Of a stretch of 64,000 nt of DNA, positions 16,827 to 56,529 are shown piece after piece; position 1 is the first letter of the stretch, and each line of letters starts with the position of its first letter. Origin of the DNA: Amblyomma americanum. Its lineage: Eukaryota > Arthropoda > Arachnida > Ixodida > Ixodidae. A model generated the notes under the pieces. That model saw only the letters and a list, made by a program, of their open reading frames with translations. It was not told the origin of the DNA and did no database searches. A program made the position numbers and the translations under genes. The stretch spans positions 114,307,634 to 114,371,633 of the forward strand of contig NC_135498.1 of the NCBI RefSeq assembly GCF_052857255.1. The letters run 5' to 3'.

Positions 16827-16869
16827 ATGATACGTCTTTTCTCTGCAGCCAGCTTACTTCTGCTGTTTT
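16827..16869 (+). CDS. Exon 1 of evasin-like gene: signal peptide
   Basis: The ATG at 16827 sits in a good context (gcgccATGa). Fourteen codons follow with a leucine-rich core (SAASLLLLF) and one overhanging T, so the exon ends in phase 1. The donor GTGAGT is at 16870-16875. Reading through the donor meets a stop after five codons, which supports splicing. Intron 1 runs about 21.6 kb and holds elements E, Penelope 2, gypsy C and several smaller repeats. Confidence 0.75.
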
Positions 16870-17775
16870 GTGAGTACTTTGTCTAAAACAAATTTATACG
16901 TATTCTAGAACTTCAGCACTACCGCCCTTTTAAATTGTGTGAACAAAATGTGAATTTCTGCGGTTACTGTTTAAACAAATGTATGATTTTAGTACGACGC
17001 TAATTTAATTTCAACTCTTACAGCTTGCCTTCATTTAGGACATATGTTTTAGAGGAACAGAAGGCGATTTCGCTTTTAGAGACGATTAGAAGGAACACAA
17101 ATATACACTGTCACTGTTAAGGGCTTCGGCTGGAAGCTAGAACTGCATCAGTGCTTCTGGCATGAAACCTTGTTTCCCCACCTAAATTTTTCCAAACCTC
17201 ATGAAACATGTGCCGATGAAATCCCACGGGCCAACTACCTGGGAGCGGTCAGAGTGATTTACCTTTGCCAGTGGTGCATACCTTGGAGGTAGAACGCCTC
17301 TATGAAGACCCTCAGGAGGATTCTTAGTGTCAGTTCTGGGCATCCCACCGCTGCCACTACTGTTAGAACTGGGGCATCTCTGCCTACTGCCATTGTTGCG
17401 TAAAGCTGGGCGACGAAAAGAAAAGGCGACGGTGAGTCAACAAAACGCCTATGTACGGCATAAAAGATGGCGCTACGTTATCGGCACTGCGGCCGAGAGC
17501 ACAACGGGCTCACATAAAGGACACGGCGCCGGCAGAGCATCTCTCTCGCTAGATAAATCCGTCTGCTCGTCTGCTGCTTCCGTTCGGCGCAGCTCGACTT
17601 TATAGCGTCCGCTGACCGCTGGAGCAGCTTGCCGTTCAAACCCTCCAATCATGTCACGGCACAGGTCACAAACTCAAGTTGACGAATGGACGAGAGGAGC
17701 TCGGCCGTTCAAACTTTGCAGTCGGAAAAGGGCTGCCGGCAAAGCATCGGTTGCGTCTCGAGCAGGCACTTGCCG

Positions 17776-17806
<31 letters not shown>

Positions 17807-20800
17807 CCGCCGGGCGAGCCTTGATGAATCATGCTGACATGTCCGAGAGTCCGGGCTTGCGTTGCGCAATGGCCGGCGCACAGCTATGGAATCCACAGAT
17901 GCCAGTGGAATGCGTGCTCTGACATAACAGCACCCCCGCCGCCAGATAATGCGGGGTACGCCAAGCGCCTCTTAAGTTCTCGTCCGGTGTTCAGGCAGAG
18001 GTGGCACCACGCTCCCTTCTGTGAACAGGTCCCGCTCGTCCGGCCTGGATCACTGCTCCGCTGCCTTGCCGCCCAGGTGTCTCGACCTGCTTCGCTCGGT
18101 TCTTCTGACGGCCTTGCTTCTCAGCATCGGTCTTTGATCGTTCGGCATCGCATCTCGCCAACAGGTAACCCACAACAGGTAACCCCAACACGAGCAAGTG
18201 GCCTCTTTTACCTGTCAAAACACAAGACTTCAAAGTAACCAAAATTCCTGGCAATAGTTCTGCCCCTGTTTTTGCTCCCTCTTCAAAAAGAGGCACATGT
18301 TCGGTACAGGACACTTAAAATCAGAACTCAAAATGTCAAGCATATGCAACAAACGAAACGAAATGGATCTAAAGTAAATGTGGTACAAAATACACAAAAT
18401 TTGGTACAAAATAAATCGCTCAGGCAGAAAACCACTCAGCCTAGGCTACAAATAAGAACATCAATTCTGCCCCGAACTACTAGCGAACTTCGTAACTGTT
18501 CGCGAAGTGACAAAATGCAGGTCACCAAGAGGTCGTTCGCGTTTAACGCGCTTCTAACGAACGGTAAACGCCATAGGCTACCGCGGGAGTCTTTATAGCG
18601 GGGATGTCTGCACCCTTCTCTGTAGCTGCGCTTTTTTCTTTCACAGTACTTGTTCGTCCAGCTTTTACGGGAGAAACAAGACGAGAACGATTTGCTTTCT
18701 CTGACTGACGACTCGTCGCTTCCCTTACGCTTCGCGTGCCGGTCGCGACTTTCTATTGCGAGCGCGTAACTCTTCTGATGGGACAGTCCTTTCTTTTTCT
18801 TTGTTCGTGGTTGTAAGTGAGACATTCCACGAGTGTTTAGTTCCTTGCGCACCCATTTTTCGTTTCGGTCGATGTGAGGTTCGCCTCTATCTTGCCTTTT
18901 GATTTCATTTGTACTGAACAGCATTATCTCAACTCGCGGCTTTCCATCGCGATACCTATGCTTGACCGTGAGCTTAGACGGTTTCTTCTTGCCAGTTACC
19001 TTGTTGCCCTGTGACTAAACGCCGCACAATATTGGGCTTTATGCGCATTACACGCGTTTTCTCTGTGCGCGCGTTCAGCTTCCTGTGGAACCATGGTTTC
19101 TTACATGACAGTGGTGGAAAGTTAGAACCTGCATGACAGGAAGGGTCTTCGTGCGTCATGCTCTGCGTGCGCTCGCGGCAATATTCACCTCGTCACTCTT
19201 CATAATTTTTCGCCTCCCGGGTGGCGCTCTATTGTATATCGGTTTGCTGCCTTGATACTCTTTCCCGCGCAAATGCATGTATGCTTTCTTTTTGCAGTTT
19301 ATCTTACTGCCCAGACTCGCCTGCCACGGCATACTTCTTCGCTTCGCATGAGTGATGGCGATGCCTCGCACATGTCTTAAGTTCTAATTCTGACGCTAGT
19401 TTAAGGCTGAAAACGTGAGTGACGTTGCTGCTATCATTTTGCAAGTGACGCTGATGCTTGCAATAGTGACACGCCGTTTTGGTGCGATTGCCCTTTCTTC
19501 CTTTTCGACGGCACCACTCTTTCTAACGCCTGTGTACCTAATTTCGGTGGCAACACTCTCGCACTAGCTGCTGGTCCTTCGTTCGAAGGACGTGCTGCTT
19601 CCGTAGCCCAGGTCACCTAGGTTCCTGTTCTCTGACAATACCACTCTAATTGTCAGACGATTCACCTGGCTCTGGCTTGTATTTGATGCCTTTACTGACA
19701 TCCTCAAAACCGCGTTCTTCCTCCTCAGAGCCTCTGAGTGCACATTCGTCCTCATCCATCTCGGATGAAATGACGTCTACAACCGCCATGTCCCCTGGAT
19801 AGTCCTGTGCCCCTCTGTCGTCCAAACCTTCGCTTCTTGAGGCGTTGACGAAGCAGTGTTCTCTCCTGACACGAGTGCTGCTAGGCAGCTGTCGTCACGT
19901 CTCTGACGTGTTTAAGCCGACTGTAAGTGGCGGCCGGCCTTGCACTCAGTTGAGGTGTTGCCGCCATTGCAGCTGCTTTTGGACAGTGAATAAGCTCGCA
20001 GCGGTGCGAAAGCACAAGACTCGTTTTGGGTCGCTGACTGCAAGCACTAATGTATAACTCAGCGTCCGCAAACTTCACATGCGTCTGCTTCCGTTAACTG
20101 AGAGTATCAGGTTTTTGCATACCTGTTGAACGCGATGCAGAACATGGTGTGCCATCCTCTGACTTTGCTTGCGTCGGCACTGTCCTTTTCATTGATGTCC
20201 AGGCGGACTTCCTCTCTGCTACGTTCTGCAAGTTCTCCTGCTTTTGACGCGCGAAGAGATCCACTTTCTGATACCTCCGCTGCCATCTCAATAGGCGAGA
20301 CCGCTGTTAAAGCATCTTCCGATGCTATGGTGACCTTATCTGAAGGTACACAGGTTTCCTGAGTTGGTGAATTCGGGGCACCTTCCACTTTTACTGTAGC
20401 AGTTACATCTGCCAAGTACCAACTACCTTCCTTTGTGCCGCCCTGGCAGGCCTGTTCTACTGCTACGCACTCTACCTCCTTGTCACGATCATCCGAGCCT
20501 TACGCATCGCTCAACGGTGGCAATGTTACCATCTCGTTGCCTGTAGCGTTGAAGCTACTTTCGGTTACGTCAACAGTGACCTCTACGCTTCCCCCAGAGT
20601 TCTTGATCTGAGGATCTATCGACGCTGTATCCAAGCTACATTGCTCTTCCGCTTTTCCGAGTGGTGTTTTCCTCTACGGTGCCAGGCCAAGTTTCTGCGA
20701 AAGCTTCTGCGCTCGAGATCGCGTAAGGGCCATGCATGCCACACCGGCAAAGATCGATTTTGCTTTATTTCTCAGAAGCTGCTCTGAGCTCTTTAAACAG

Positions 20801-23800
20801 AGATAAGGAAAATGATCGGGGAGAGCGGTAGACACGGCCGCCATGGCGTTGAGCTGACCAAAAGAGCCCTCAGTGATCACCGTAGCGATCGGTAAGCGAC
20901 CACATTGCTTCCCGGCACTTGCTTTATCCAGGCGCATTCTCCTTTAAATCGTTCGGTGAGACCAAAGACGGGTGGAAAACGTTTATAGTGGCTGCAGAGT
21001 CTCGAAGGCACTTTTTGCCTTTCACACTAATCTCCTGCATATATGTATATGATTATAGCAACCGCATACTCTTGTGTTTCCCGAATAGTTGCAAAAGCGA
21101 CCTTTTATTTACAGTTTGCCGTGATATGCCCTTCCTTTTTGCAGTCATTGCAGGTCGAAGGCTTGAGTGACTCAAATGCACGTGCGGCATCCGCGCGCTC
21201 TTTTAGAGCAGTCTCATTTGAAGGACACGGATATTTTAGAAAATGGCAACGCGCGAACAGTTTCCCTTCAATCGGCTTCCTTAGAGAAGCCTTCTTAGTT
21301 TCCGCTTTTTCGATGCGTAATACCCTGCTGTGCAAGTTTCGGCTAGTCTAGTATTCCTCAGCCAGATCGGCTGCCTTGTTAAGGTTTGCCTCCATAAGCC
21401 TATCCTGTAGCCGCAGCGTTACATCGTCGTGGATGGAGCGGTAGAATTGCTCCAGTGCAATCCACTGTACCACCTGATCCTTGTCGTTATAAACTTCCTC
21501 ATCCTTGAGCCATTCACCTAGGTCGGCTTACACACACCCTAAAATTAATCAAAGCATCGGCGACGCAAGTGTCGCGCATTATAACCAGGGTCTCCAGAAG
21601 GAGGCACGGCCTGCGGGAAAATGACACTTTAACACTCGTCAGAAGCCTGCAGAATAACATACAGCCTCGCATACTACAACTGCACTAAGAGAGAAATACT
21701 TCAGGCAGACACAATAATAAGGAAAGCATATAAGTTAGCGCTCCACCAATCGCAAGCAACCTCAACGGCGAAACTCTTAGCCTTGGGTTTGCATAACACC
21801 TTAAAAGAGCTGAGAGAAGCCCAACTTGCGGCGCAGCTACAAAGGCTAAAACAAACCAAAGCTGGGATAGCGCTCCTAAATAGGTGTGGCTACGAAGGTG
21901 CGCTGCAAGAAACCAGAAGAACAGAGCGGATACCTGGCGAATATCGCAACACACTCAGGATAGCCCCGATACAGAAAAACATGGATCCAAACCTGCATAA
22001 AGGACGCAGGGAAGCTGGGGCAAAATACTTTCAACAAATCCTAGCCGAAAAAGAAAACACACTCTACACAGACGCGGCTGCGTACCCGAGAGATTCTCGA
22101 GAAATCAGAAACAGAATGGTAGCAACGGCAATAAACTTTGCACACAGGGAAACAGCCAGCGCATCATTCAAGGACTGTGCGGCCGAGGAAGCCGAAGAGG
22201 CTGCCACCGCCCTGGCGGCGGCGGAGGGCTACCGGATCCGAAGGTCTCTAACTATATTAACAGACTCGCAAGCAGCATGCCGAAATTACATGAATGGCAA
22301 AATAGGACGGAAAGCTCTACATATCCTTAAATCGGCCAAAATGCCGCAAACCGAGGAACAACAACTGCAACACGTAATCATGTGGGTACCAGGACACACC
22401 GGGATCGCCGGGAACGTAGAGGCTGATAGGATTGCTCGTGAGCGCACAAACCGAGCCTCCACTCAAACTGACCTCGACAACCCAGCAGCAGACCCGGTAC
22501 CCCTGAGCTACTCAGACATTCTAAACTATCACAGCGGAACGCGACTCAAATATCCGCCACCCCATAACAGCCTACACCAACAAGATGCAGTAGGCTGGAG
22601 GCTGCTGCAAACGGGGACTTTCCCCAATCTAAATACCTTAAGTAAAATCTACCCCACGCAATACATCAGCAAATGTCCGTGGTGTGGAGAAAAACACACG
22701 TTAATGCACATAACGTAAGTGTGTCAGAAAAACATGGATCTAGCTGCAATAAACAAAAACTCGAGTGCGGAAAAGTGGGAGGGGATGATCTCCAGCGAGG
22801 ACCCGGCCGTCCAGCGCGGATTGGTGCGGAGAGCCTACATGGCGGCATACCTCAGTGGAGCCCTGGACCAGGGGCCCCAACCCTGTTAAGATGGGCTGCA
22901 ATAACTCATCGGAAGATGAAGAAGACAGCCCGCGACCGCTAATAACATATTTTAATATAAAATATAAATAAAGTTTTTCCTCCTCCGCCTTCAGCTTAAA
23001 CGCGAAGTCAATGTGTGACTCACTGCGTTTTTTTGCGTACTGGAATCTTTGCCGGAATGCCTAAGATGACAGATTATGCTTCCTTAATAGGGCCTCTTTC
23101 ACCTCTTCGTAGCTCTCGAACGGCTTCTTCGACAAGCACGTTATCACCTCAGATGCTTCCCAGAGAAGCACAGCTAGCCAATTCTGTGTTCACAGAGCCC
23201 GCTCAATGGCATTTCTTTCGCAAACATGCTCAAATTTTATGAGATGTTTTTCCATGTCCTCGCCATTACGAACGGCGGCAGTTGGTCTCGAATTCTTAGG
23301 GCGTTAGCCTGCAGCGTTGTTGAAGCTAGGCCAGGCGCCAGTGAGTTTTACCTCTGCGCCAACTCTCCCATTTTAAGGCGAAAGCCTTTAATGGCTCATG
23401 CTGCGTCCGTCCGTCCTTTGGTCCGTCTGTTACGCTCTTGAAAGATGGTCTCCGATTTCACCTGCGCGAGCTAGCGCGGGCGGATTTTCTCGGAGGCCAC
23501 GTTGCGCCATTGGTAGTTCAGTGTGCTTGGGCGAGGTGGCGCCACCGACGCGCGCACCGCGCCTGTGCCAGACGCCTCTCAGCTGTCGACCGAGTTAAGT
23601 GCCGCGCAGCCTCCCTCCTAGCGCTCGCTTCAATGGAGTCTCACAATGCGGAAAACTCAGGCTCTTAATTAAGATCTTAACCACACATGAGCGACACAGC
23701 GGCAACACCCCACTAACGGCTATCGCCTCACTGCACTTTAGGCTAATAAAGTGCCCCCATGAATTTTTTCTCTCGTGCTCTCTGGCGCCCCTTTCTGTCT

Positions 23801-26800
23801 GCCTCTTCACGGCGTTCTTTGGCCTCCTCGCGCTCAAGGCGTTCTGTGATCTGAGCCAAGGCCTCATTGGCTTCCTCAGCCGTTGCGCCTTCCACACGTA
23901 TGACCTCAAGAATCGCATGCTATCCTTTTGCGGGGCCCAAAGCAATGCCCAAGTAGTCACAAATTTCGGCGAGTTACTCCCTTTTAAGATTCTCCATCGT
24001 TCTCACTAATCTCTTGCTCTTTGCCGTTGCTAGAATTCCCTTGCCGTGCACGGCTATCGATGAACTAGTAGGACACGCGCAAGCAATTCTTTCCATTAAC
24101 GCCTTGTTTACTTCCTCAGCACCAGCTGTGGCTTAAAAGCACTGCTACGAGGTTCGAAACAATAAACCTTTCTCCAGTGCTTCACACAGCCCTACTCTAG
24201 GCTACAATAACGTGTGTTGGAGAAGTATGGCGAATTGAGGTCAAATCGTCAAGCACTCACCGCGCCGAGGTAGCTGACGCCGGTCGATCCTGCAGCTGCC
24301 ATCCACTCTTAGGTCTGTGCATTCCAACGCTGCCACCACTGTTACGACTGGGGCATCTGAGCCTGCTGCCACTCTTGCACAGGGCTGAGCGACGAAACAG
24401 AAAGGTGACGTTGAGTCAGCGAAACATTTGTGGACAGTATAAACAATGGCGTTAAATTATCGGCACTGGGGCCGAGAGCCCAGCGGGCTCACACAAAGGG
24501 ACACGGTGGCGGCAACTATGGGAGCCACCTAAGCCCCCCGCACACTCACTGAATAAAAAAAAAAACCTGTGGCGAGGCTTGAATTCAACCAGGTCTTTTG
24601 GCGTTTTGAGGTGGAGACTCTACCACTCCGCCACGACCGCTCGACCTTTAAAGGGACACGGAGGAGAAATTGAAGCTGGCTTGCATCCACAGAATAGCAG
24701 CTCCTGATCACAAAAACGCCGCTCTTCCTGAAAACAAAGCTCTTGTAATGTAGAAAATAGCAAGAACCAAAATACAGGTATTGCCACCACAGGCCAATCT
24801 CGCAAGTACAAGCGTGATGCCTTCCTAGGACAAGAGGCGCCACCTTTGAGGAATTTTCCTTACTTCATGAAATCACGAATCTCTGAGGCTGGCAAAAGAA
24901 GTTTGCGCACCGCACCTCTAGCCGTCAGAAATCACGGAGTCTGCGTTTACGTCACGGTTCACGTCACTCCGTTCTGTGTCGTCATAAGAGTTGCCGTGAC
25001 GTCATAAGAGTTCCTTGAGTTTGAATCACGGCGGCGGGAAAAACTTTTTCAACTTCGAATCCAAGTTTCTTTGAAATAAATGCATCTTTCGCGCCCAGAC
25101 AAGCGACAACAGTAATGAAATGCCGAAATATCAGATTTTGCTAACAAAAAAAATTGACAGAGTTCTCCTCAGTGTCCCTTTAACCATCAATAAAGGCGCA
25201 TGTTGTGAATGCACTCTTCCGATGAAGAAGTCGACGCGCTTTCGCTACGTTTATCCTAGCCTAACATAACTAGGCCATCAGCAATTTTTTAGCCCCGATG
25301 ACTGTTGCCGCAGCCAGGCGTTCAAACCCTCCAATCAGTTCACAGTTCGAATTTCACGAATCGACGAGAGAAGCTCGGTCGTTCGAAGTTTGGAGCCGGG
25401 AAAAAGCTCCCGCGAAGCGTCGGTTGGAGATCGAGACGATGCTTGCGAGGGGGGAGGGGGAGGAAGCCGCCTGCCCTGAATCATGCTGCAAGCCGCGACA
25501 TGTCCAAGAGTCCGGGCTTGCGTTGCGAAATGGCGGGAGCAATGCGCTTGCTTCCACGGAGGCCAGCGGTATGCGTGCCCGGGCATAACACTAGTTAGAA
25601 GTGACTGTTTACAGTGAGTGAATGTGAAAGAGGAAGAGTAGCAGATTTAGTTAGAAAGGTGAGAAGTAGACACTTCGGATCATTATTTCTCCTGTAACAC
25701 TCAAGCGCACAACAGGAAAAAGAAGAGGGCCCTGATAGGTAATAATGTGGATATAAGAGGCCTCGCCAGTCTTCCATGAAATCACCAACTAGTGTCATCT
25801 GTCGGTTGCCAGTGGCTCACACTGTGTTACTGATTATAAAAGTCTGTGTTTGAGAGAAAAACATGGAGTGCAGCCAGATGCACCGCAAAGAAGCGGATTT
25901 TCATGATGTTGATATGTGTGTCAAGGCTCATAAATTGGAAAGTTGATTTTCAGATGCCGGCATGGTAATTACAGTTAAAGACACGGACACACAGAGATGC
26001 CACAGGAGACACACTAGACACACTAGACTTGCAACTAGAATTTTTTTGCGGGCAGGGAATATTTATGCACTGATTTTTCCTTTTTCCTTTGTGCTCCATT
26101 GCTGTCACCTATCAGCTGCTGTCGCGTCAAGTGATGATAATGAAAGAGAAATCACCAAAAGCACATCCGAAGGTTAAATACGGGATCAGAGTTACATGCC
26201 AACATGAGTGAACCTCATAAAAGCAATATTGAAAAAACAATAATAATAATGGGACATGTGAAGAGACGGCAACAGGTTCTAAAATTCTGGCTGAGGAAAA
26301 GATAACGAAGTTAAAAGCACGATATAGCTGAAAGGCCATAAATTTATGACGCGATAGTGGGTTTAAATGTTCATTTGAGAGACAAGTGTAAAAGCTAACA
26401 GCAATGGAAATTGTCAACTAACTTAAGGTGGGCTTGGTGAAACATGCCTAGTCAGACAGCTGAAAGATGTAGTACCAGTAAAAAAAATAATGGTGTCTTC
26501 GACTGGTCGCTCCCGCGATCAGGTTAAGATCTGGCAGAGTGGGAGCCGCTCTCGCTCCGAGCGCATACCGAGACTAGTCAAGCCGAATGGTCAGCGAGTT
26601 TTTAGAGAGGAAGCGCTGGAGGCAGAAGGGGGACGTAACTTCCGGAACCACTACACGGCACCGCTGCTGATGTCAACAGTAGCCGCACGTAAGGTCCCTT
26701 GATTACCTTTAGCCGCACATAGTTTGCATCGCGGTCGCCGCTGAGCCTGTATCGATCGCTACCCCGGCTTTCCGTCCCACGGGGCGCTCATTTTTCGAAC

Positions 26801-29800
26801 ATCGCCTTGTGGATAGCACTGTCGTCCTCGTCTGAGCTGCTGCTGGAATCGCTGTTGTCATGCGACAGAAACACATACCGCGTCCCTAGCGTAGTTATCC
26901 GGCGTCTCTTGAATATTTTGCCTCACACAGCGCGGCACTCAGAAACACAACACAGCAAGGACGCTACTACTGCGTCAAAAGCGTACACTTGCTTCTGCCT
27001 ACGCGCAGGGGACGCCGAGGCCTCGCACCGCTTTCGCGAAATAGCGGGAGTGGCTCTGTCATGTGGACTCATCTCGGAGCCCCTCCGACTTTTTTCTCGG
27101 AGCGCGTCAGAGCGCTCTGAGATGGAGGCGAGCTCTCAGAAAGAACCAGCCGAATGTAGTCAGAGCGGCCGGTTTCGACCAGCCGAATGTGCGGTCGCCT
27201 TTCAGAGCGCTCTAGAGCGATTTAAAGCGACCAGTCGAAGACACTATAACATAAAAAGAAAAAAAAACGGTACCGAGTAGCAAATACGCTGTTTAAACAG
27301 TTAATATATGTAATGAAATGAGAGTGGGAGGAGTTACAACGAAAGAATTCCACAAGGTATACAGAGCATCAAGCCAAAAGGCAAAAGTGAAGCATAAAAA
27401 GAGTGAAGGCTACGAAAGAGATTCAAAATATGGTGAAATAAAGCGACAAGACAGAAGAAAAAAATTAATCCTACGCTGTTTACTGCTAAAATCTTCGCAA
27501 CCTAGAGGATTGAATAAGATACGTACTTAATGAATTGTTCAGCAAGGCGGAAATTTGGGCGAGTTGGTAAGTGTTCATTTTCGCTCTCAGCGCAACACGA
27601 ACGGGACACAAGACGAAGGACTAGCACAAACAGACGCTGACTATCAACTGGTTTTTTATTGAAGAACGAAAAGCGTATAAATACAAACAGTCAACTACTT
27701 ATCAATCAACAAAACATATCTGGAAGGCACGTGGGAGGTCAGATAGCTCAATTCCCTCTCGGATAACGTTATGGAAGGGCAGCTGATACATGTGCCGTTG
27801 TGGTAAATATAAAAAGCTTCCATTACCTCGCGTGTTAGTTTATTGTTATGTCGGAACAGGATGCGTGTGTTCCTGTAATCGGGAACACATTGGCACTTTT
27901 TGCACTGGAAAGACGCCTGGGCAAGGGGGTCCCCTTTCGCTCTTCTTTCTGCATGATCCTTTTTATGCCTGCATTGGCATTGCCTGATGTGGGAGCCTGT
28001 GTGAGACAGGCGGTCATTTTTCCTGGTGTTTTCATGCTCCATCAAGCGTTTGTTAACGCACCTGCCAGTCTGGCCAATGTACATGGCACCGCAGGAGAAG
28101 GGGACCTGGTATACCACCCCTACCTCGCAAGGTATAGATGGCGACACATGACGCACCTGACAAGCATCCCTCTTGCTCTTGCCGTAGAGCCTCTGATTGA
28201 CCTGTTTGCACATTGCGCTACGTTTTCTAGGTGCAGAAGAGACGACTTCAACGTCGTATCTGCCCGCAACATTTTTCAGCCCATGTGACAAGCAGTGTGC
28301 ATACGGGACCACAGCCGGCTTTTTCTTCTTTTTGGCTTCTTTCGGCTGAGCCCCATTCTTGAGCTGCCTAAGAAGTTTCTCCGCTGCCCTGGAAATGAGT
28401 TGATTTGGGTACCCGTTCACACGTAACCTGCCTGTTTGTGCCAAAATGCTCTCTGGCGTCCTTTCATGGCAAGATTTCCTGAGAGCTGATTGCAGGCAAG
28501 ATGCGGCAATGCCCTCCTTTATGAGCTTAGAATGGCCAGACCGGAAGTTTAGCAACGGTTTGGCAGTCCTCGGGCGATACCACCAACACAAATGTGTTTT
28601 TCCCCCCACACAGTGCCAAATCCAAAAACTGCAGTTCTTTGTTGCTGGGAACCTCAGTTGTGAACTCCAGCCCACGTCCGCATTCCTTAAAAGTCTTCAG
28701 AACGTCGACCAGACTTCTAGGCAAACTGCCTGTTCGGGTGAGCACCAAGTAATCGTCGATATACCGAAAAATTCGGACAACTACCCCATCCAATGCCTTT
28801 TCAATTTCCCTATCAAGCCTGCTTAATAATGTATTAATGTAATTAATGTATTTGCTCTATTTTTCGTTTTTGTTTACTATATGTACGTGCTGCAGAATAA
28901 GCCTTCAAAAATTCCTTCCGCAACCCCACCGAATAGCTACGACAGCAGCAGGAAATAAGTTTTGTAAGCATTACAAAATTCCTGGGCAATTTTGATATGG
29001 CCAGCGGCATGTAGAACGAGCTGAAGCTGAATTGTCCCGCGAACACAGCTGAAGAAGAGACCAGGACACCGCAGGAAATCAAGGCAGCAGCGAATTTCGC
29101 GCTATGTTCAAAAGAAAGTGAACCAGCAATCACAAACAAGCTTTTCAACCAGAAGCGTTGTGATTTTTTGGGATTTACAGGGTGTACTCTGATTCTATAA
29201 TGCACTGTCTCAGTACCATAAGAAGAGCAGCAGCCCGAAGAGACCGCATGCGTACATTCAGGGCGTTCTGTGCGCTGTTGAACCCGTTTGCTGCCCTCTT
29301 GCACCTATGACGTCATACTCGATGCTTCGGCTTGGCTCTTGTCTTAGCACCCCACCGTTATCGACTGGGCCCACGCCGAAGTTGAGTTTTCTACTTTACC
29401 CGAGCTCTCCCTGGCCGCCGAGGCGCCTGCGTGTGGGAAGCTACATGTTACCGCATCACCTGACGTGCCTGCGCGCTCTCCTGTCGTCGTCACCCTCTCT
29501 TGAGACACTGCACCTGATTCCGCCATCCTGTTTACCCCCCTCCGATTTTTTTGCTTCACCGAATTATCTTCCCTTGCCATTTGCTGTGCTCACTGTGAGT
29601 CACCATGACACAGGAATGACAGTTTATAATACGTTTTCCTTCCATATTTCCTTGCTTGCTGGTACTTGCAGAGGACGCGCCGACCCCGTCGACTCTGAAC
29701 TTATAGCCCCGTTTCCCGCTACGTATATTGAACCGATGCTGAATGCCATCAGCACTTCTCGCCTTGCTTGCGATTCCATCACTACATCCACCTTCGCGAA

Positions 29801-44800: not shown

Positions 44801-47800
44801 CAACCTGTAAGGTTCTTCAGACGCCAATAACTAAGCACCGCATTATCGTCGATAGTGACCAGAGACCACTATGTCAGCGTCCTTATCGTGTTTCGTCGAA
44901 GGAACGTGATGCCATCCACCGCCAAGTTGCCGAAATGCTCCGCGACGACGTCATACAACCATCGACGAGTCCCTGGGCATCACCTGGTGTTCTCGTCGCA
45001 AAGAAAGATGGCAGCATACGGTTCTGCGTGGATTATCGACGTCTGAACAACGTTACCTAAATGGATGTATATCCACTGCCGCGCATTGATGACTCATTAG
45101 ATCGCCTCCGCCATGCTACCTACTTTTCGTCACTCGACCTGCGTAGCTGTTATTGGCAAATCGAGGTCGATGAACGTGACTGAGAAAAGACCGCCTTCGT
45201 TACTCCTTACGGATTGTACGAATTTAACGTGCTTCCTTTCGGCTTGTATTCAGCCCCTGCAACGTTCCAACGTATGATGGACACCGTACTGACTGACCTG
45301 AAGTGGCAGTCCTGCCTTGTGTACCTCGACGACGTCGTGATTTTCTCCGACATGTTCGAGGAGTACCTGAAACATTTGCGTGCTGTTTTTGAGGCCATTT
45401 GTTCTGCAGGTCTGTCTCTGAAGCCTGAAAAGTGCCACATCGCATTTAGGGAGCTCAAGTTTCTTGGCCATATTGTGAGCGCTCAGGGCGTTAGCCCTGA
45501 CCCATAAAAGACGGCCGCCGTTGCTGCATTTCCCCAGCCAACAGATAAACGAAGCTTGTGGCGTTTTCTGGGGCGTTGCGCCTAATATCAGAGGTTGGTT
45601 GAAAACTTCCCCAAGCTCTCAGAGCCGCTGACTCGCCTGAAAAATGACTCCGAACCCTTCTTCTGGGGCCAGGATCAGGAAACAGCTTTCAAAGAACTTA
45701 AGGCCCGCCTCCAATCTACGCTTATCTTTGGCCACTTCAACGAGAAAGCCGCGACGGAAATGGACAGATGCCAGCAATGTTGGCCTAGGTGCGGTGCTTT
45801 TGAAGTGGCAAGACGGTGTGGAACGCGTGCTGGCATACGCAAGTCGCACTTTGTCCCGTGACGAAATGAATTATTCCACCACGTGAAAGGATTGTGTCGC
45901 TGTTGTGTGGGCAATCACCAATTTCGTACCCTGCCTGTACGGCCATCCGTTTCGAGTCATCAGCGATCATCACTCCTTGTGTTGGCTTGCGAACCACTAA
46001 GATCCATCGGGGCGCCTTGCACGGTGGAGCCTTCGGTTGCGAAAGTTCGACGTCACTATCGTGTATAAGTCGGGTCAGCAACATAGCGATGCAGACTGTC
46101 TCTCCCGAGCTCCTCTTCCGTGCCCACCAGATGAGCCCGACGACGATCCTGCTTTCCTCGACACTGTCACCACATCCGAGCTTGCCCGCCACCAAAGGGC
46201 CGACTGCGAACTGCTTCCTCTAATTGAGTACCTCGAAGGAACCACTCCGTCTCTGCCCAGACTGTTCTCTCGAGGACTTTCATCGTTTTGTTTAATAGAT
46301 GGAGTCCTCTACAAGGAAAACTACGGCCCGACCGAAACTGCGTATCTCCTCGTTGTCCGAACCGTGTTTCGTCAGGTAGTTCTCGCTGCATGCCACGACG
46401 ACCTTTCTTCTGGCCACCTTTATTTTTCCAGAACATTGGGACGCCTCCGCCACAGGTACTACTGGCCTCGGCTTGCTGCGGTCGTCCAACGCTACGTTAG
46501 AACCTGTCGTGAGTGTCAACGACGGAAGATACCGCCGACAAAACCGGCCGGCCTTCTGAAGCCAATTGATCCACCGCAAATCGCATTTCAGCAATTCGGC
46601 ATGGAGGAAAAACGCTAAGGTGCCCGTGTGCTGTGCGATGTCAGTGCACGTTAAAGATCCCCAGGTGGTCGAAATTATTCCGGAGCCCTCCACTACGGCA
46701 CCTCTTCTTCCTTTCTTCTCTCACTTCCTCCTTTATCCCTTCCCTTACGGCGCGGTTCAGGTGTCCAACGATATATGAGACAGATACTGCGCCATTTCTT
46801 TTTCCCCCAAAACCAATTATTATTCGGCATGGACTTACTGGGCCCACTCCCAGTGTCCTCCATCGGTAACCGGTATATTGTTGTTGCCACGGACTACCTC
46901 AGCCGTTATTGTGAAACCAATGCTCTTCCCCGTGGCACCGCGGCTGAAATTGCACAGTTCTTTGTTCGCCACATTGTGCTTCGCCACGGCGCCCCCGCGG
47001 ATGTATTAACTGACCGGGGAACCGTGTTTACCTCGGCTCTTATACATGAGGTCCTGCGTCTCAGTGGCACCAGTCATAGAAACACGACTGCTTACCATCC
47101 TCAAATGAGTGGTCTGACTGAGAGGCTGAACAAGACCATTGCAGATACGATGTCTATGTATGTCGACGCTGACCATCGCAACTGGGATGGAATACTCCCT
47201 TACGTCAAGTTTGCGTACAACACCGCCCTCCAAGAAAAGACGCGCTTCTCTCCCTTCCGTTTGGTGTATGGCCGGGACGCCCTGACTATGCTGGACGCCA
47301 TGCTGCTCGCAGATTGTGCCCCTTCGTCTGTCACCGGCGCTGACCAATTCATTCGTGATGCAGAAGCCGCTCGCCACCTTGCTAGACAACGGATTCGACA
47401 CCAGCAGAAAACTGACGCCCGGCGTTACAACCTCCATCACAGCGAGTTGATTTACCAACCCGGCGAGCACGTCTGGGTATGGAGCCCTATACGTTTCGGC
47501 AGGCGCTCTGAAAAGCTTCTACGCCGTTACTTCGACCCCTACGAAGTGCTACGTCAACCCAGCGAGGTCAACTGTGAAGTGTTCCCTCAAGGAATCGCCC
47601 GCTCTTCTCGGCAGCCCAAGTCTGAAGTCTTCCACGTGGCCCGCATGAAACCGTATTGCGCCCGTTAACCATTGTCGGAGTTCACATTCAGTGCCGCCGC
47701 CACACGCAGCTTCGCATTTTCGGTGCCTAAATTCTGTTTTCCCCCTTGCCGGAGGCATCTAGGCGATGCCTCTTGAAAGGAGGGTGGCAATGCCACACTG

Positions 47801-50800
47801 CTCACATTCTGCGAGCGCCGCCATGGGCCGAACGGCATGGCTGGGCTCGTCTGGAAGCGAAGACGACGACGTTCCCGCTCGGACGCGCGCTGCTGGTGTT
47901 CTTGGCGTTCGGATTAAAAGCCCCCTTTCGTGTCGCCCTACGTTTGTCGGCAACAATATTAAGTATTTTCTTAAGGTGATCACGACTAGTTCCAAGCAGC
48001 CTTCTTGTCGCGTGGCCTATTTATTCCTTAATAATAATTACAGTTGCAGGTTATCGCCAAGCGCCCACGTGAAGTAGCTTCTCTGCACTGTGTTGTCACC
48101 AAGTGAAATACAATCACCGCGAAATGTAGCGGGACGTTCCCTAGCTCTAAGGACCTCCTCAAAAGGACTGCATGCAAAAATATGGTGCTAAAAGGTGCGT
48201 TTAGTGACCTAAATTAAATTCTGATTACCGACGTGAACGGAAGTGAGATTATTTGTGAACGGAAGAGGCTTTCCCCACTTTTCGTGTTTATTTGGGCGCG
48301 GACGCAACAAATTTCTAAATACGAACAACAATAATCAAAGCATGTTTGCGACAATGAAGTCCACCTGAACAGCACAGTCTAGCAACTTTTGGTCCTTTGT
48401 GGAGAATGGTACAGACTTTTATGGAGGCGAAACGCGGGAGGGTTTAGTGGCAGCACTGTCTAAGATAGGAAGAATGATATCAGCATCAGGTTATCGAACG
48501 AGCAAGGCGAGCAGATTACAGTAATTGGGTCACGGACTAGGGACACCATATTCTTTTTCCTCAACATCTGCCTGTACTACAATAAATATTTTCGTCGTCA
48601 TTTCTTTCATCCGCTTACGGAGGTGGTGGTAAAAAGTTGACAAGCTTTTTTAATGCTCAAAAAGATAGATTGAAAGTCCGAAGAAACCGCTACATGACCT
48701 GTATCCTAAATCCATGGACCGCACGACGAGGCGCTGTCTCGCGCCCGCTTTACCAGAAACCTTTTGGGACTCTAGTGTGGAGCAGCTGAGGAGGGCAGTC
48801 TCCCATGCCTCTCGGGTAGGGGTAGGAGAAGGGGGAAGGTGATGGTTCTGAGTGCATGGTCACATCATGTGAAAGAGATCGCAGATCTTGCCATAGAGCT
48901 GGCAACGCCCATCTATGTTGGGATGAACGTGTTTCACTACGGCAGGACAAAGGACAGTTCTTGTCTGCAGGCGCCGCAGAGCCCGCTCCTCCGCCTCTCC
49001 CCGGCCCCTTTCAGGGGGCCGGGTAGAGGCGGTGGCTGTCGCAATAATGAATTAAAAAGAACAGCAGAAGCCGTTGACGAGCTTCTGAGCCAGGAGAGCT
49101 AGGATGAGGAGCCCAGTGTGTACACGCTCGGGCGGCCGCATCAGCGTCCTCATTGCCTCGTAGACCCTGGTAGCCAGGAGCCCATATTATGTTTGTCTCA
49201 GTTGAGTTGGTTTATGGTTGTATGAGTTGGGGCCCGTCGTAGAATTTGGGAGGCAAGAAATGATATTTCTTTTTCCATATAGCGGTCACAGGCCCGGCGA
49301 GAGTGTGTGAAAACCGTTCTCGACCTTGAATCCGCGGCAGCGAAAGATATTGCAACTTCCTCAGCTCGCGTTGAAGTTCGGGCCCGAAAGGATAGACTAT
49401 CGATATTCATTCCCTGATGGACTACGACAGCACTCTAGGTTCTGGCTGATAGCATATGGAAGACAAAAACTACAGTTGGGAAGGCGACCGGGATGGGACA
49501 AATTCGATTCATTTCTATGTTTTTCGGCTAATTCATACGGCCTTTGTGTGCTAATCTTCGGCATCGTTAATAATCCAGCCAGTCACCACATTGATTGCGC
49601 GAACTCTCTTCAAGTCTCCAAAATAACACTATACCTGTGGAAAGCATGCAGTGGTGCTAACTTTGCTCCGACGTTTCCGACGTGCGATTTTGTTCGATAG
49701 TGATTTCATTTAAAAATTAAATTACGAGCATTGCTACGAAACATAGGAAGTTTTATGGAATCCTTAGAAAGTTCATAACACATTCAGATAACAGACAGAA
49801 AACACATTCCATGAAAGCGAAGGAAGGACTTGTCATCTCCCAATTTCAGGACAATTTAAAGGTGCATCAAAATATGACGCTCCCGGGCTGCTGGATAGAA
49901 GCAAGTGGCTGATAGAGCTTGTGTTTAGATGCAACTGCGGGCACACATTTTCATAACAAAGAATTAGTGTGCACGACAGTTGTGTTCTACGCCAAGAAAC
50001 GAATGAATTGCAACTTTAATATTTACTTGTGAAAAACTTCAGCATACTTACAGCGAAAAAGGAGTTTCTAGCGCATTCGCTGTGCATGCGTTACTGGCTG
50101 TCACTTGTGTTTTTCAGATTACCGTTGGGTGCACAGCAAAATGTGGAGATGTTTGGACAAAGGCACATACAGATGGCGAGCAATGCATTGTGAGTGACAA
50201 AGCTGTTTTGTTAAGTTAACACTAAACTAATAGCTGTGATATAGTTTAGACATTTGATATTTAATTTTCATACGCACACGTGCCTCTGAGCGACGTCGCA
50301 CTGAACACGTCCAATTCGTTATGAACCACTTGAAGTTCTTTAACGTGTAGTGATGTCGCCGATGACGTGGTAAGTTTGGCATTTTACCACTAGCAAAGCG
50401 CCGCCGCTGCGCGCAGGACTAAAGCCTTTGAGATTGCTAGTAACAGCATGTTGTAAGAATGATAGGTTTTTTGGGGAATAAGCCGTTTCTTGAGACAACG
50501 CGACGGCCAGGACGGTTAGAATTGTGCACTTTCGGGGAGCAGTAAATCCGCCCAGGGACTGGTCTATCCGGCTCATTTGCTTTAAGCATAAACTGAGATA
50601 TCTTTTGCTATTGAAGAAGGAATTCTGCTGATTGTTAATTTCGGTTCAAAAGCGTCGTATATACTCGCTTGTGAGTTGAATGTAAAAACTTTAATTTTTG
50701 AATTGCCGTAAATCTTCTCTGAAGTATAACGCCGCCTTTTTCTGTAGGCTAGATGATTATGTCGGACAACTGAATTTAAAAGTAGATGGCTTGGCGTTCT

Positions 50801-55976: not shown

Positions 55977-56070
<94 letters not shown>

Positions 56071-56529
56071 TCGTGTTTCAAACCCGTGAATTGTACTTTG
56101 CATTGTATACGCGTGACAAGATCATTTAACTGTTACATACTCTTTTTTCGTTTTGTTATTGTTCTCTTTTGTCAATTTATTCTTTCTCTTTTGACCTTGA
56201 TTTTGCTCCCCTCTTATGTAATGCCTTCGGGCCTTTAAGGGAAAAAATAAATGAAATAAATGAAATGACTTTATTCGGGTAAATATCAGCGACATGTGAG
56301 AACAATAAGAGAAAGCAGCCATAATTCCATCTATTAATTTCGTGCATCCTGGTGATTTTTATTACAGAACGTTTCCTACAAAGCTGCCAGTAAGATGAAA
56401 GAGGGCATCAAATACTTCTGCCCACTCGGTATATGCGACGGCCCTGTTTGTCAGCCAAGTGGACTTCTGTTGCGATGCTGGAGCCAAGGTTTTCAAAATC
56501 TTGGCACACTCCAAGCCCAAATGCTGTAG
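16827..56529 (+). CDS. Class A evasin-like secreted chemokine-binding protein, five-exon gene
   Basis: Predicted CDS join of 16827-16869, 38508-38540, 40818-40870, 50118-50189 and 56368-56529. The total is 363 nt: 120 residues plus TAG. Every internal boundary has AG/GT sites and junction phases 1, 1, 0, 0 keep one open frame. Exon 1 gives a hydrophobic signal peptide with a plausible cleavage after a Ser-Ser-Ala at about residue 20. The mature chain has the eight cysteines spaced x15, x3, x13, x18, x4, x4, x8. This fits the published class A evasin pattern (14-17, 3, 11-16, 17-20, 4, 4, 8). An Asp-Gly pair precedes the fourth cysteine and one N-V-S glycosylation site lies at 56368-56376. Class A evasins are tick salivary proteins that bind host CC chemokines extracellularly; that role is inferred here from the cysteine pattern only. 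One extra cysteine lies five residues before the first conserved one. Alternatives are another tick cysteine-rich salivary family or an unexpressed paralogue. Confidence 0.85.
16876..17336. other. Start of intron 1, no other feature
   Basis: A possible acceptor at 17017-17023 leads to a frame that closes after a few codons, so I do not call an exon. Confidence 0.4.
17337..17929 (-). repeat. 3' LTR of element E
   Basis: On the minus strand it begins TGTTATGTCAGAGC (17929) and matches the copy ending at 25590. The match ends at TGGGCATCCC (17337). A G-rich GCGGCGGGGGTGC lies just before it on the minus strand and may be the polypurine tract. Confidence 0.75.
17774..17800 (+). repeat. Poly-G tract inside the LTR
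   Basis: Twenty-seven G in a row where the sister LTR has a shorter broken G/A run (25449-25462). This is a local expansion. Confidence 0.9.
17930..20106 (-). other. Unidentified internal region of element E
   Basis: The best frame (18924-18436 minus, 162 codons) is rich in Lys, Arg and Ser ([20 protein letters not shown]). No family is recognised. The region may be spacer or the remains of an element-specific ORF. It occupies the place where pol would be expected. Confidence 0.4.
20107..20937 (-). pseudogene. Protease-end/linker region of element E
   Basis: The minus frame 20937-20674 ([33 protein letters not shown]) resembles the segment after protease in tick gypsy polyproteins. The frame 20415-20107 is an acidic Ser/Ala linker. 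No catalytic Asp-Ser/Thr-Gly triplet was located, so protease activity is not supported. Confidence 0.5.
21535..22985 (+). mobile_element. LINE 3' part with RNase H, inserted antisense into gag E
   Basis: 5'-truncated LINE of the I/R1-like type. It runs from the last part of RT through RNase H to the 3' UTR, with AATAAA at 22967-22972. Its boundaries interrupt one Gag reading frame of element E (KLKA before, DLGEWLK after). It is therefore younger than E. Confidence 0.8.
21690..22889 (+). pseudogene. LINE ORF2 C terminus: RNase H and zinc finger
   Basis: The frame holds all RNase H signatures in order: LYTDAAAYP, a Glu-rich helix ([18 protein letters not shown]), LTDSQAAC and [20 protein letters not shown]. 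It continues to a CCHH-like finger ([12 protein letters not shown]). TAA at 22716 interrupts it, then the same frame runs through [19 protein letters not shown] to the natural stop at 22887. The catalytic residues look intact, but the protein lacks RT. Confidence 0.8.
24554..24643 (-). mobile_element. tRNA-like SINE or tRNA pseudogene
   Basis: On the minus strand TGGCGGAGTGGTAGAG (24618-24633) resembles an A box and GGTTGAATTCAAGCC (24576-24590) a B box. A T-run (24554-24565) would terminate Pol III. A complete cloverleaf is not evident, so I do not call a functional tRNA. Confidence 0.5.
24648..25183. mobile_element. MITE flanked by TTAA
   Basis: TTAA at 24648-24651 and 25180-25183 flank inverted ends AGGGACACnGAGGAGAA (17 bp). 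TTAA duplication is the mark of piggyBac-type transposition, though these ends do not start with the usual CCC. No transposase is present. It lies within the LTR of element E. Confidence 0.7.
25591..26492. other. No gene recognised
   Basis: Ordinary intron-like sequence between element E and the next TIR element. Confidence 0.4.
26493..27244. mobile_element. DNA transposon derivative with perfect 19-bp TIRs
   Basis: GTGTCTTCGACTGGTCGCT at 26493-26511 is perfectly inverted at 27226-27244. Sub-terminal AGAGCG and CGACCAGCCGAATG motifs recur. On the minus strand near 26880-26800 a frame reads [11 protein letters not shown], which could be a remnant of a transposase or accessory protein. Flanking bases do not show a clear duplication, so the superfamily is open. 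Confidence 0.75.
27245..27535. other. No gene recognised
   Basis: A-rich sequence between two transposable elements. Confidence 0.4.
27536..28826 (-). mobile_element. Penelope-like element copy 2, 5'-truncated
   Basis: About 95% identical by eye to copy 1 across 10325-11620, in the same orientation. It lacks the inverted terminal copy at the RT side and ends abruptly in RT at 28826. Confidence 0.85.
27695..28793 (-). pseudogene. Penelope RT/GIY-YIG endonuclease, copy 2
   Basis: The RT tail with YIDDYLV in place of YVDD lies at 28793-28527 and the endonuclease frame at 28675-27695. The GIY-YIG motif ([20 protein letters not shown]) and Cys/His clusters ([15 protein letters not shown]) are intact. 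The one-base shift near 28605 equals that of copy 1. The C terminus differs by a local frame change ([15 protein letters not shown]). Confidence 0.85.
28827..29305. other. No gene recognised
   Basis: AT-rich start (TTAATG repeats at 28826-28850) then ordinary sequence. The long minus frame here has no recognisable domain. Confidence 0.4.
29306..32470 (+). pseudogene. Decayed gypsy pol (element C): protease end, RT, RNase H, integrase
   Basis: The order of a tick gypsy pol is intact but stops and shifts are dense. [20 protein letters not shown] follows a protease-end segment at 29360. RT fragments ([27 protein letters not shown]) appear at 30060-30180. The catalytic YxDD is replaced by GRDN near 30393. 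[20 protein letters not shown] (30585) is the RT end, [19 protein letters not shown] (30840) is RNase H and [13 protein letters not shown] (31165) the hinge. Integrase pieces ([20 protein letters not shown] at 31995) lead to the end near 32467. It cannot be active. Confidence 0.8.
32500..32727. other. Possible 3' LTR start of element C
   Basis: A purine stretch (GAGGGAG) and TGATTATAGTAACGAG at 32512 could be polypurine tract and LTR start. No second copy exists in the window to confirm it. Confidence 0.3.
32728..32826 (-). mobile_element. tRNA-like SINE head
   Basis: On the minus strand GGTTCGACTCTCC resembles a B box, and TGTGGCAATAGCATAG lies about where an A box should. The A-rich tail is at 32700-32725. 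A cloverleaf was not confirmed. Confidence 0.4.
32830..38062. other. Intron 1 sequence, mostly unassigned
   Basis: A CTGTGGCAAAGTGATAAATA ending at about 33885 resembles a LINE 3' tail. A GC-rich block lies at 36230-36560. A long minus frame at 33498-33124 lies over a repeat-like stretch without a domain. Nothing else is supported. Confidence 0.4.
38063..38375 (+). mobile_element. Ruka-type SINE
   Basis: The head has GGGTTCGAACCCGG (38107-38120) as B box. The body is clear (GATGTCAGTGCACGGTAAAG, GATGGTCGAAATTATTACAG). It ends with a C-run and CCTCAAAACCAGTTTTC. It lies just upstream of exon 2. Confidence 0.85.
38508..38540 (+). CDS. Exon 2 of evasin-like gene: 33-nt micro-exon
   Basis: The acceptor ends in CTTTCAG at 38501-38507 and the donor GTAAGA is at 38541-38546. 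Phase 1 in and phase 1 out: the T from exon 1 plus GT makes a Cys codon, and the final G joins GA of exon 3 to make Gly. It encodes the end of the signal peptide and a short polar N terminus of the mature chain. Joining exon 1 directly to exon 3 would make TGA, so this micro-exon is required. It lies about 130 bp after a SINE (38063-38375). Confidence 0.72.
39431..39830 (+). repeat. Degenerate direct repeat, three partial units
   Basis: GCGTCTAGTG starts at 39431 and 39661, and GCGTCTAG again at 39813. The first two units also share AACGTGTC and TAATTATGAGCGTGTA in order. Unit spacing is about 230 then 152 bp. Confidence 0.6.
40478..40690 (+). mobile_element. Degenerate SINE
   Basis: GGCTCAGTGGATTTGGCGTTG, an altered B box, then CATGCTAAAGAACCCCACG and CACTACGGCAGCC follow the order of the other SINEs. 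It is older than the copies at 9360 and 38063. Confidence 0.65.
40818..40870 (+). CDS. Exon 3 of evasin-like gene
   Basis: A strong pyrimidine tract ending in CTGCAG precedes the exon, and CAG|GTTTGT at 40868-40876 forms a somewhat weak donor. The exon starts with two nt that complete a Gly codon and ends in phase 0. Cys codons are at 40820-40822 (extra) and 40835-40837 (first conserved class A cysteine). Only this frame is open across the exon. It sits about 127 bp after a degenerate SINE. Confidence 0.75.
40877..42240. other. Intron 3 start, no gene recognised
   Basis: Contains several open frames (for example 41503-42048) without domain or splice support. Confidence 0.4.
42246..42410 (+). 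repeat. 5' LTR of gypsy D
   Basis: Starts TGCCACACTGC and ends TTTTTCGGCGACA, with AATAAA at 42369-42374. Confidence 0.9.
42414..42429 (+). promoter_or_regulatory. Primer-binding site of gypsy D
   Basis: TGGTGGAGGTGCTGGG follows the LTR after three bases, identical to the site in element A. Confidence 0.65.
42439..43768 (+). pseudogene. Gag of gypsy D, three TAG stops and a frameshift
   Basis: The Gag capsid domain reads [20 protein letters not shown] through FASxQWDD-like motifs to [23 protein letters not shown] interrupts it at 42796, 42916 and 43513. The last lies inside the zinc knuckle ([17 protein letters not shown]). A shift near 43605 moves the basic tail ([18 protein letters not shown]) to another frame ending at 43768. 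Start chosen at the first ATG after the primer site. Confidence 0.85.
43837..47668 (+). pseudogene. Pol of gypsy D: protease, RT, RNase H, integrase
   Basis: Thr/Pro-rich linker, then protease with the catalytic Asp changed to Gly (VGTGAD, codon 44077-44079). RT has YLDD at 45322-45333 and stops at 45058, 45181, 45505 and 45583. RNase H ([19 protein letters not shown]) follows a shift near 45755, with a stop at 45884. Integrase keeps its HHCC finger and the DDE residues (Asp 46832, Asp 47012, Glu 47120) and runs open to TAA at 47668, broken only by a SINE. It encoded the enzymes of reverse transcription and integration. Confidence 0.88.
46606..46821 (+). mobile_element. 5'-truncated Ruka-type SINE with 12-bp target duplication
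   Basis: ATTCGGCATGGA at 46594-46605 and 46822-46833 brackets a 216-bp SINE body lacking the tRNA head. The flanking duplication lies within the integrase codons before the first catalytic Asp. Confidence 0.93.
47791..47955 (+). repeat. 3' LTR of gypsy D
   Basis: Same 165-bp length as the 5' LTR. The preceding AAAGGAGGGTGGCAA is the polypurine tract. Confidence 0.9.
47960..48610. other. No gene recognised
   Basis: Intron 3 sequence between gypsy D and a LINE remnant. Confidence 0.4.
48615..49190 (-). mobile_element. LINE 3' remnant with RNase H end
   Basis: Minus-strand frames give the RNase H end ([16 protein letters not shown] at about 49170) and a zinc-finger region ([16 protein letters not shown] at about 48890). 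The C-terminal [14 protein letters not shown] follows. The poly-CCACC tail is near 48620. Several shifts and stops. It is the same family as 63590-64000. Confidence 0.7.
49200..50117. other. Intron 3 end, no other feature
   Basis: Nothing recognised besides the acceptor of exon 4. Confidence 0.4.
50118..50189 (+). CDS. Exon 4 of evasin-like gene
   Basis: The 72-nt exon lies between a textbook acceptor (TGTTTTTCAG) and the donor GTGAGT at 50190-50195, in phase 0 at both ends. Cys codons at 50130, 50142 and 50184 give the C-x3-C-x13-C part of the class A pattern. The first is 15 residues after the last Cys of exon 3. An Asp-Gly pair (50172-50177) precedes the third cysteine, as is common in class A evasins. 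Confidence 0.8.
50196..51705. other. Intron 4 start, no gene recognised
   Basis: An acceptor-like site at about 50862 and a frame with two cysteines do not fit the evasin pattern. A short (TA) run lies at 50888-50899. Confidence 0.4.
51706..52843. mobile_element. Mariner-like element with ACCGGGTGTTTCACCT inverted ends
   Basis: ACCGGGTGTTTCACCT at 51706 is inverted to end at 52843; homology extends to about 27 bp with three mismatches. The right flank is TA and the left CA, so a mutated TA duplication is likely. The 1.14-kb interior has no transposase frame. A short CTACCG triple occurs at 52149-52166. Confidence 0.75.
52844..55268. other. Intron 4 sequence with a GC-rich block
   Basis: GC- and CpG-rich at 54600-54840, otherwise AT-rich. 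No gene recognised. Confidence 0.4.
54708..54781. promoter_or_regulatory. Cluster of four CACGTG boxes
   Basis: Palindromic CACGTG occurs at 54708, 54720, 54732 and 54776 in a CpG-rich block. CACGTG is the binding site of bHLH-zip factors of the Myc/USF type. It could be an intronic regulatory element or part of an unrecognised repeat. Confidence 0.35.
55269..55504 (-). mobile_element. Full-length tRNA-derived SINE
   Basis: On the minus strand the head carries GCCGCCGCGGTGACTCAGTG and a B box GGTTCGATTCC (complement of 55441-55451). The body ends with GTTTAACTCCACAAAACC-like tail sequence at 55269. Confidence 0.85.
55525..56270 (+). mobile_element. CR1/L2-like LINE 3' end
   Basis: The frame to 55833 ends with [20 protein letters not shown], the standard C terminus of CR1/L2/Jockey-type ORF2. 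The 3' UTR includes a (TA)n tract. Before the tail it has CCTTCGGGCCTTTAAGGG, followed by AAATAAATGAAATAAATGAA. Confidence 0.8.
55978..56068. repeat. (TA)n microsatellite
   Basis: About 45 uninterrupted TA units inside the LINE 3' UTR, 300 bp before exon 5. Confidence 0.95.
56368..56529 (+). CDS. Exon 5 (terminal) of evasin-like gene
   Basis: The acceptor ends in ATTACAG at 56367. Fifty-three codons and TAG (56527-56529) follow in phase 0. Cys codons at 56419, 56434, 56449 and 56476 give C-x4-C-x4-C-x8-C, the C-terminal signature of class A evasins, and the first is 18 residues after the last Cys of exon 4. Tryptophan follows the last cysteine. A GTAAGA at 56389 could act as an internal donor but using it would remove the signature. 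The exon begins about 100 bp after a CR1-like LINE tail. Confidence 0.85.
   Translation, partial: NVSYKAASKMKEGIKYFCPLGICDGPVCQPSGLLLRCWSQGFQNLGTLQAQML

What the first reader, a model, noticed from the sequence alone, without database searches (positions are those of the whole stretch)
16827..56529. Class A evasin-like gene spread over 40 kb of transposons
Five short plus-strand exons, each bounded by splice sites, join in one frame (43+33+53+72+162 nt = 363). The product has a signal peptide and the exact eight-cysteine spacing of class A evasins. TATA and AATAAA bracket it. None of the exons stands out alone; only the phases and cysteine spacing reveal the gene. Evasins are chemokine-binding proteins of tick saliva, so this is the functional core of the window.
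Basis: partly seen in the sequence, partly recalled or inferred. Interest (0 to 1): 0.92.

Follow-up and report, generated by a model that had tools for sequence, protein, structure and literature searches.

The report
Lone star tick class A evasin gene
This 40-kb stretch holds a genuine five-exon tick gene, already listed without a name in the public lone star tick annotation, that belongs to the evasins, saliva proteins that bind host chemokines and so dampen inflammation at the bite; it is a real but fairly ordinary family member.

Summary
Five plus-strand exons (16827-16869, 38508-38540, 40818-40870, 50118-50189, 56368-56529) tile a public 120-aa NCBI protein exactly: [quoted passage not shown]. 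It matches Pfam EVA_Class_A over the whole profile (68.3 bits, cut-off 27). Its nearest solved structures are Evasin P974 and Evasin-1. The cysteine gaps 15-3-13-18-4-4-8 fit the published Cys8 motif (PMC8569228). Spacing alone was weak evidence: 6 of 100 shuffles gave a matching exon 4-exon 5 pair. The profile and the public protein settle it. These do not make it subclass A3. Most likely function (inferred): a secreted CC-chemokine-binding protein of class A1 type. No expression or binding data were available here. It is a new, unnamed member of a known family.

The parts
16763..16770 (+). TATA box (TATATAAA), 62-64 nt upstream of the ATG
   Evidence: sequence
16827..16869 (+). exon 1: start codon and hydrophobic core of the leader; ends in phase 1
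   Evidence: residues 1-14 of P0001; donor in the top 5.3% of 3519 GT sites by a recalled consensus
16870..38507 (+). intron 1, 21,638 nt, holding an RNase H reading frame and one of two near-identical retroelement copies
38508..38540 (+). exon 2: probable end of the signal peptide and start of the mature protein; phase 1 to 1
   Evidence: residues 16-25 of P0001; best splice score among 727 open, phase-compatible candidates of 12-150 nt between exon 1 and exon 3
38541..40817 (+). intron 2, 2,277 nt
40818..40870 (+). exon 3: extra Cys27 and the first motif cysteine (Cys32); phase 1 to 0
   Evidence: residues 27-43 of P0001; acceptor in the top 0.1% of 3814 AG sites, donor in the top 3.1%
40871..50117 (+). 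intron 3, 9,247 nt, holding a Ty3/gypsy-like integrase region at 46001-47665
50118..50189 (+). exon 4: motif cysteines 2-4; phase 0 to 0
   Evidence: Pfam EVA_Class_A 17.4 bits, profile 13-36 (below cut-off on its own); residues 44-67 of P0001
50190..56367 (+). intron 4, 6,178 nt
56368..56529 (+). exon 5: motif cysteines 5-8, C-terminal tail and stop codon
   Evidence: Pfam EVA_Class_A 34 bits, cut-off 27, profile 37-73; residues 68-120 of P0001
56678..56683 (+). AATAAA polyadenylation signal, about 150 nt after the stop

Best explanation
A genuine, intact five-exon gene of the lone star tick for a secreted class A evasin, closest in kind to subclass A1. Shown here: the exon structure, identity with NCBI LOC144121764 isoform X1, the full Pfam EVA_Class_A match and the Cys8 motif. 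Inferred: the signal peptide (probably cut near residue 20) is removed, four disulfides form the evasin core, and in saliva the first strand of the core pairs by backbone hydrogen bonds with the CC motif of host CC chemokines. That would cover the surfaces a chemokine needs for its receptor and so reduce leucocyte recruitment to the bite. The long introns are taken to be ordinary introns enlarged by retroelements.
For: The exon pieces tile the public 120-aa protein. Pfam EVA_Class_A 68.3 bits, residues 32-104 = profile 1-73, with exons 4 and 5 separately falling on adjoining profile stretches 13-36 and 37-73. PDB matches: Evasin P974 E 1.9e-4 and Evasin-1 E 6.8e-4. Cys gaps 15-3-13-18-4-4-8 against the published motif. 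Hydrophobic N-terminus, best 9-residue mean 2.59 at residues 7-15. TATA and AATAAA. CC-motif mechanism from passages of PMC11081419 and PMC7322545.
Against: No expression or binding evidence was seen. NCBI calls the protein uncharacterized. The structure model, made from one sequence, failed (mean pLDDT 42.4). The protein search found no relative besides the protein itself (1 hit among 7 candidates). The acidic, tyrosine-bearing N-terminus of most class A evasins (21 of 24 in PMC7322545) is missing, so chemokine binding may be weak or altered. Exon 3 alone gave no Pfam hit (0 of 2 pieces) and exon 4 alone no PDB hit. Exon 5 alone against the PDB was not significant (Evasin-1 E 0.31, an unrelated antibody chain 0.36, P991 2.2).
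Confidence: 0.85

Rival explanations
1. A class A evasin-family gene whose product no longer binds chemokines, or works on another target: a drifting family member that keeps the fold but has lost the N-terminal recognition segment.
For: Basic N-terminus without tyrosine before the first motif cysteine; in class A1 evasins the N-terminus matters for binding (passages); no close relative found; drift of tick salivary paralogues is argued in PMC5622192 (passage).
Against: All eight motif cysteines, open exons, splice sites, TATA and poly(A) signal are in place, and class A3 evasins bind with their termini removed.
Confidence: 0.25
2. A pseudogene or an untranscribed relic split by transposons.
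For: Introns of 2.3-21.6 kb, at least two of which hold retroelement pieces.
Against: Every exon is open with usable splice sites, and the gene is in NCBI's annotation with an isoform label.
Confidence: 0.05
3. A chance chain of open pieces chosen to fit a cysteine spacing.
For: A Cys-spaced exon 4-exon 5 pair arises in 6 of 100 shuffles of one strand.
Against: Pfam 34 bits for exon 5 alone and 68.3 bits for the public protein; the predicted pieces equal an annotated protein.
Confidence: 0.01

Closest known systems
NCBI uncharacterized protein LOC144121764 isoform X1, Amblyomma americanum (P0001)
   Same: All 120 residues accounted for by the five exons and their two split codons; this is the gene itself.
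   Different: Carries no evasin name in the source; the database row gives Pfam PF19429.5.
Evasin P974 (PDB 7so0, 7s4n), class A1 (class from the passage)
   Same: Best solved match, E 1.9e-4; shares the GC-x3-C, TDG-x2-C and CPLG-x-C stretches.
   Different: Match limited to residues 45-97 of P0001. The P0001 N-terminus is basic with an extra cysteine.
Evasin-1 (PDB 3fpr), class A1
   Same: Evasin core and CPLG-x-C; E 6.8e-4 over residues 45-109.
   Different: Evasin-1 has three confirmed or potential N-glycosylation sites (passage); P0001 has one, N68.
[quoted passage not shown] the first equation is recalled, the second inferred from the code E1243)
   Same: Class A core, same tick genus, and an extra cysteine ahead of the first motif cysteine.
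   Different: EVA-ACA1001 has a Cys-x-Cys N-terminus, and A3 pairs an N-terminal cysteine with one in strand 4. P0001 has Cys-x4-Cys and no cysteine between motif Cys3 and Cys4, where P991 has one. PDB matches are weak, E 0.13 and 0.82.

Membership tests
Class A evasin (Pfam PF19429 EVA_Class_A) | Profile score above the curated cut-off of 27 bits | tested here: met
   68.3 bits, profile 1-73 of 73; exon 5 alone 34 bits; exon 4 alone 17.4 bits, below cut-off; exon 3 alone no hit
Class A evasin, Cys8 motif | C-x(14,17)-C-x(3)-C-x(11,16)-C-x(17,20)-C-x(4)-C-x(4,5)-C-x(8)-C | tested here: met
   gaps 15-3-13-18-4-4-8 against PMC8569228
Class A evasin | Signal peptide | tested here: inconclusive
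   Hydrophobic N-terminus by hydropathy only; no predictor run
Class A evasin | Acidic N-terminus with a candidate sulfotyrosine (common, not obligatory: 21 of 24 sequences) | tested here: not met
   First Tyr is residue 35, after motif Cys1 (residue 32); residues 21-31 hold three Arg and one Glu
Class A evasin | Evasin fold with four disulfides | tested here: inconclusive
   Model from one sequence, mean pLDDT 42.4; not used for a fold search
Class A evasin | Binds CC chemokines | not testable with these tools
   Needs purified protein
Subclass A1 | The eight motif cysteines, in a metastriate tick | tested here: met
   class definition from PMC8569228. One further cysteine (27) lies outside the motif beyond the presumed signal peptide. 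No tree was built
Subclass A3 | Two added cysteines, one in the N-terminus and one in strand 4 | tested here: not met
   No cysteine between motif Cys3 (52) and Cys4 (66); P991 has one there. That this is the strand-4 cysteine is inferred
Subclass A2 (Ixodes) | Lacks one cysteine pair of the motif | tested here: not met
   All eight present
Class B evasin (Cys6 knottin) | C-x(3)-C-x(6,10)-C-x(3,6)-C-x(1)-C-x(10,11)-C | tested here: not met
   The gap list holds no C-x(1)-C

The most novel reading that the evidence does not exclude
An A1-like class A evasin with a remodelled recognition end: a basic N-terminus without sulfotyrosine and an extra Cys27 that, lacking the strand-4 partner of A3 evasins, stays free or links two evasin molecules. 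That would make it a covalent dimer or give it a chemokine choice outside the described A1 and A3 modes.
Probability: 0.15. Interest if true: 0.45.

Novelty: new member of a known kind. Interest (0 to 1): 0.27.

Why it matters
It puts a family name on an unnamed gene of a tick that bites people, and gives one worked exon map for an evasin gene (five exons; intron phases 1, 1, 0, 0; 39.7 kb). The extra cysteine and the unusual N-terminus give a specific test of how far the described A1 binding mode extends. It also shows that a blind reading of raw sequence recovered a multi-exon gene exactly.

Tried and rejected
Cysteine spacing as proof: rejected, because 6 of 100 shuffles of one strand (4-kb blocks) held a matching exon 4-exon 5 pair and 10 of 100 an exon 5-type piece. 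The test used no splice scores and did not ask for exons 1-3. The second C5-C8 pattern in the window, 10763-10822 plus strand, lies opposite a retroelement reading frame and was taken as chance. Alternative exon 3 (37901-37953, cysteine also at an allowed distance): weaker splice score, no Pfam hit and not part of P0001. Alternative exon 2: the other 726 candidates scored lower. Splicing exon 1 straight to exon 3: both borders are phase 1, but the split codon would be a stop (sequence), so an exon 2 is required. Subclass A3: rejected, no strand-4 cysteine. Structure model: mean pLDDT 42.4, so no fold search was made. Whole-genome search for paralogues: not completed in eight attempts. Exon 5 alone against the PDB was not significant: best E 0.31 for Evasin-1, next to an unrelated antibody chain at 0.36.

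Full report
What was claimed. Five plus-strand exons between 16827 and 56529 were said to encode a class A evasin. The exon lengths were given but not the inner coordinates.

Checking the exons. Exon 1 (16827-16869) and exon 5 (56368-56529) have the lengths, borders and stop described. I listed AG/GT-bounded open stretches of the stated lengths between them. Of 50 candidates of 72 nt (only those with a cysteine near the end were printed), 50118-50189 has three cysteines at motif distances; its acceptor is in the top 1.2% and its donor in the top 2.6% of sites in the window. Of 57 candidates of 53 nt, 40818-40870 is the best by splice score of those lying before exon 4, with its acceptor in the top 0.1% of 3814 AG sites. 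For exon 2, 38508-38540 is the best of 727 phase-compatible open candidates of 12-150 nt. The splice consensus used for scoring is recalled, not taken from a call. Skipping exon 2 would create a stop codon at the split codon.

Is it more than chance? Spacing alone is not enough: 6 of 100 dinucleotide shuffles of one strand held a Cys-spaced exon 4-exon 5 pair. Exon 5 alone, however, matches Pfam EVA_Class_A at 34 bits (cut-off 27; E 3.6e-8; profile 37-73). Exon 4 alone matches the same family at 17.4 bits (below cut-off; profile 13-36), so the two pieces, 6 kb apart, adjoin on the profile. Exon 3 read with flanking bases gave no hit (0 of 2 pieces), nor did the alternative exon 3 (0 of 1). Exon 4 alone found nothing in the PDB, and exon 5 alone nothing significant (best E 0.31, Evasin-1).

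The public protein. A search with the exon 5 piece in a database of 5.77 billion proteins returned one protein, 100% identical over the piece: 120 aa, on a contig of 235,277,662 bases, named by NCBI 'uncharacterized protein LOC144121764 isoform X1 [Amblyomma americanum]', with Pfam PF19429.5 precomputed. The five window pieces, each read on its own, fall at residues 1-14, 16-25, 27-43, 44-67 and 68-120. Residues 15 and 26 are the split codons. The whole protein scores 68.3 bits over profile 1-73. A search with it found no other relative at E up to 10 (1 protein, itself, among 7 candidates). That search needs shared exact words, so distant evasins would be missed.

Family and subclass. The nearest solved structures are Evasin P974 (E 1.9e-4) and Evasin-1 (6.8e-4), then weakly P991 (0.13) and P1243 (0.82), with one unrelated enzyme in between (0.44). 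The Cys8 motif given in PMC8569228 (passages read) is met: 15-3-13-18-4-4-8. That paper puts class A1 in metastriate ticks, among them Amblyomma. Two cysteines lie outside the motif. Cys15 is in the hydrophobic leader. Cys27 is five positions before the first motif cysteine. A3 evasins have a fifth disulfide between the N-terminus and strand 4 (PMC10349104, passages), and EVA-ACA1001 has a Cys-x-Cys N-terminus (PMC11081419, passages). P0001 has Cys-x4-Cys and no cysteine between motif Cys3 and Cys4, so I do not file it as A3. PMC10349104 also mentions seven Rhipicephalus sequences with two added cysteines elsewhere; I did not see their positions, which are in a supplementary figure. No tree was built.

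How it most likely works. Passages of PMC7322545 and PMC11081419 describe class A evasins as pairing backbone to backbone with the CC motif of chemokines and covering surfaces that the receptor needs. I infer the same here. Against a standard A1 mode: before the first motif cysteine the presumed mature chain is basic and has no tyrosine, whereas 21 of 24 sequences in PMC7322545 have a tyrosine in an acidic setting in that region, and A1 evasins depend on this end. So weak, altered or lost binding remains possible. An AlphaFold2 model from the single sequence was too poor to use (mean pLDDT 42.4).

Surroundings. The four introns are 21,638, 2,277, 9,247 and 6,178 nt. Intron 1 holds an RNase H reading frame at 21633-22715 and one of two near-identical retroelement copies (27537-28696 against 10325-11412; 93-97% over the three reported blocks). 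Intron 3 holds a Ty3/gypsy-like integrase region (46001-47665). Three reading frames upstream of it (42208-42795, 42919-43512, 44659-45057) gave no Pfam hit. The long frames of the repeated element (10497-11486 and 27698-28696) gave no Pfam hit either, but the copy at 10.3-11.9 kb has an RVT_1 match at 11320-11685 and inverted ends, which suggests a Penelope-like element; that name is recalled. 'Spread over 40 kb of transposons' is fair in outline, but the transposon share was not measured.

Literature. A search for LOC144121764 found 0 papers. PMC13113040 (passages) reports stage-specific evasins in Amblyomma americanum salivary glands; the string LOC144 does not occur in its main text. Searches for evasin with exon, intron, splice or gene-structure terms (listings, of which one search showed 20 of 92 papers) showed no title on an evasin gene's exon structure. 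Of those papers I read passages of PMC5622192, PMC7322545, PMC8569228 and PMC13113040. This covers open-licence PMC papers only.

Verdict. It is a genuine, annotated but unnamed member of a known family, with modest sequence peculiarities at its N-terminus.

Noticed in passing
10325-11892 and 27537-28696: Two copies, 93-97% alike over the three reported blocks, of a retroelement; the first has inverted ends (10354-10528 and 11718-11892) and an RVT_1 match, as in Penelope-like elements (name recalled).
   Followed up: partly
2451-5995: LTR retroelement with 95% alike direct repeats at 2451-2750 and 5696-5995 enclosing gag, zinc-knuckle and partial RVT_1 reading frames.
   Followed up: partly
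42208-47668: Ty3/gypsy-like element in the gene's sense orientation within intron 3 (H2C2 and rve integrase domains at 46001-47665; three upstream frames gave no Pfam hit).
   Followed up: partly
9363-9433 (+) and 55431-55502 (-): Two tRNA-family matches barely above the gathering score (30 and 32.4 bits against 29), perhaps tRNA-derived SINEs.
   Followed up: no
55978-56068: Perfect TA repeat of 45.5 copies, 300 nt upstream of exon 5.
   Followed up: no
61725-62426 (-): Reverse transcriptase fragment, probably of a LINE, downstream of the gene (RVT_1 54.9 bits).
   Followed up: no
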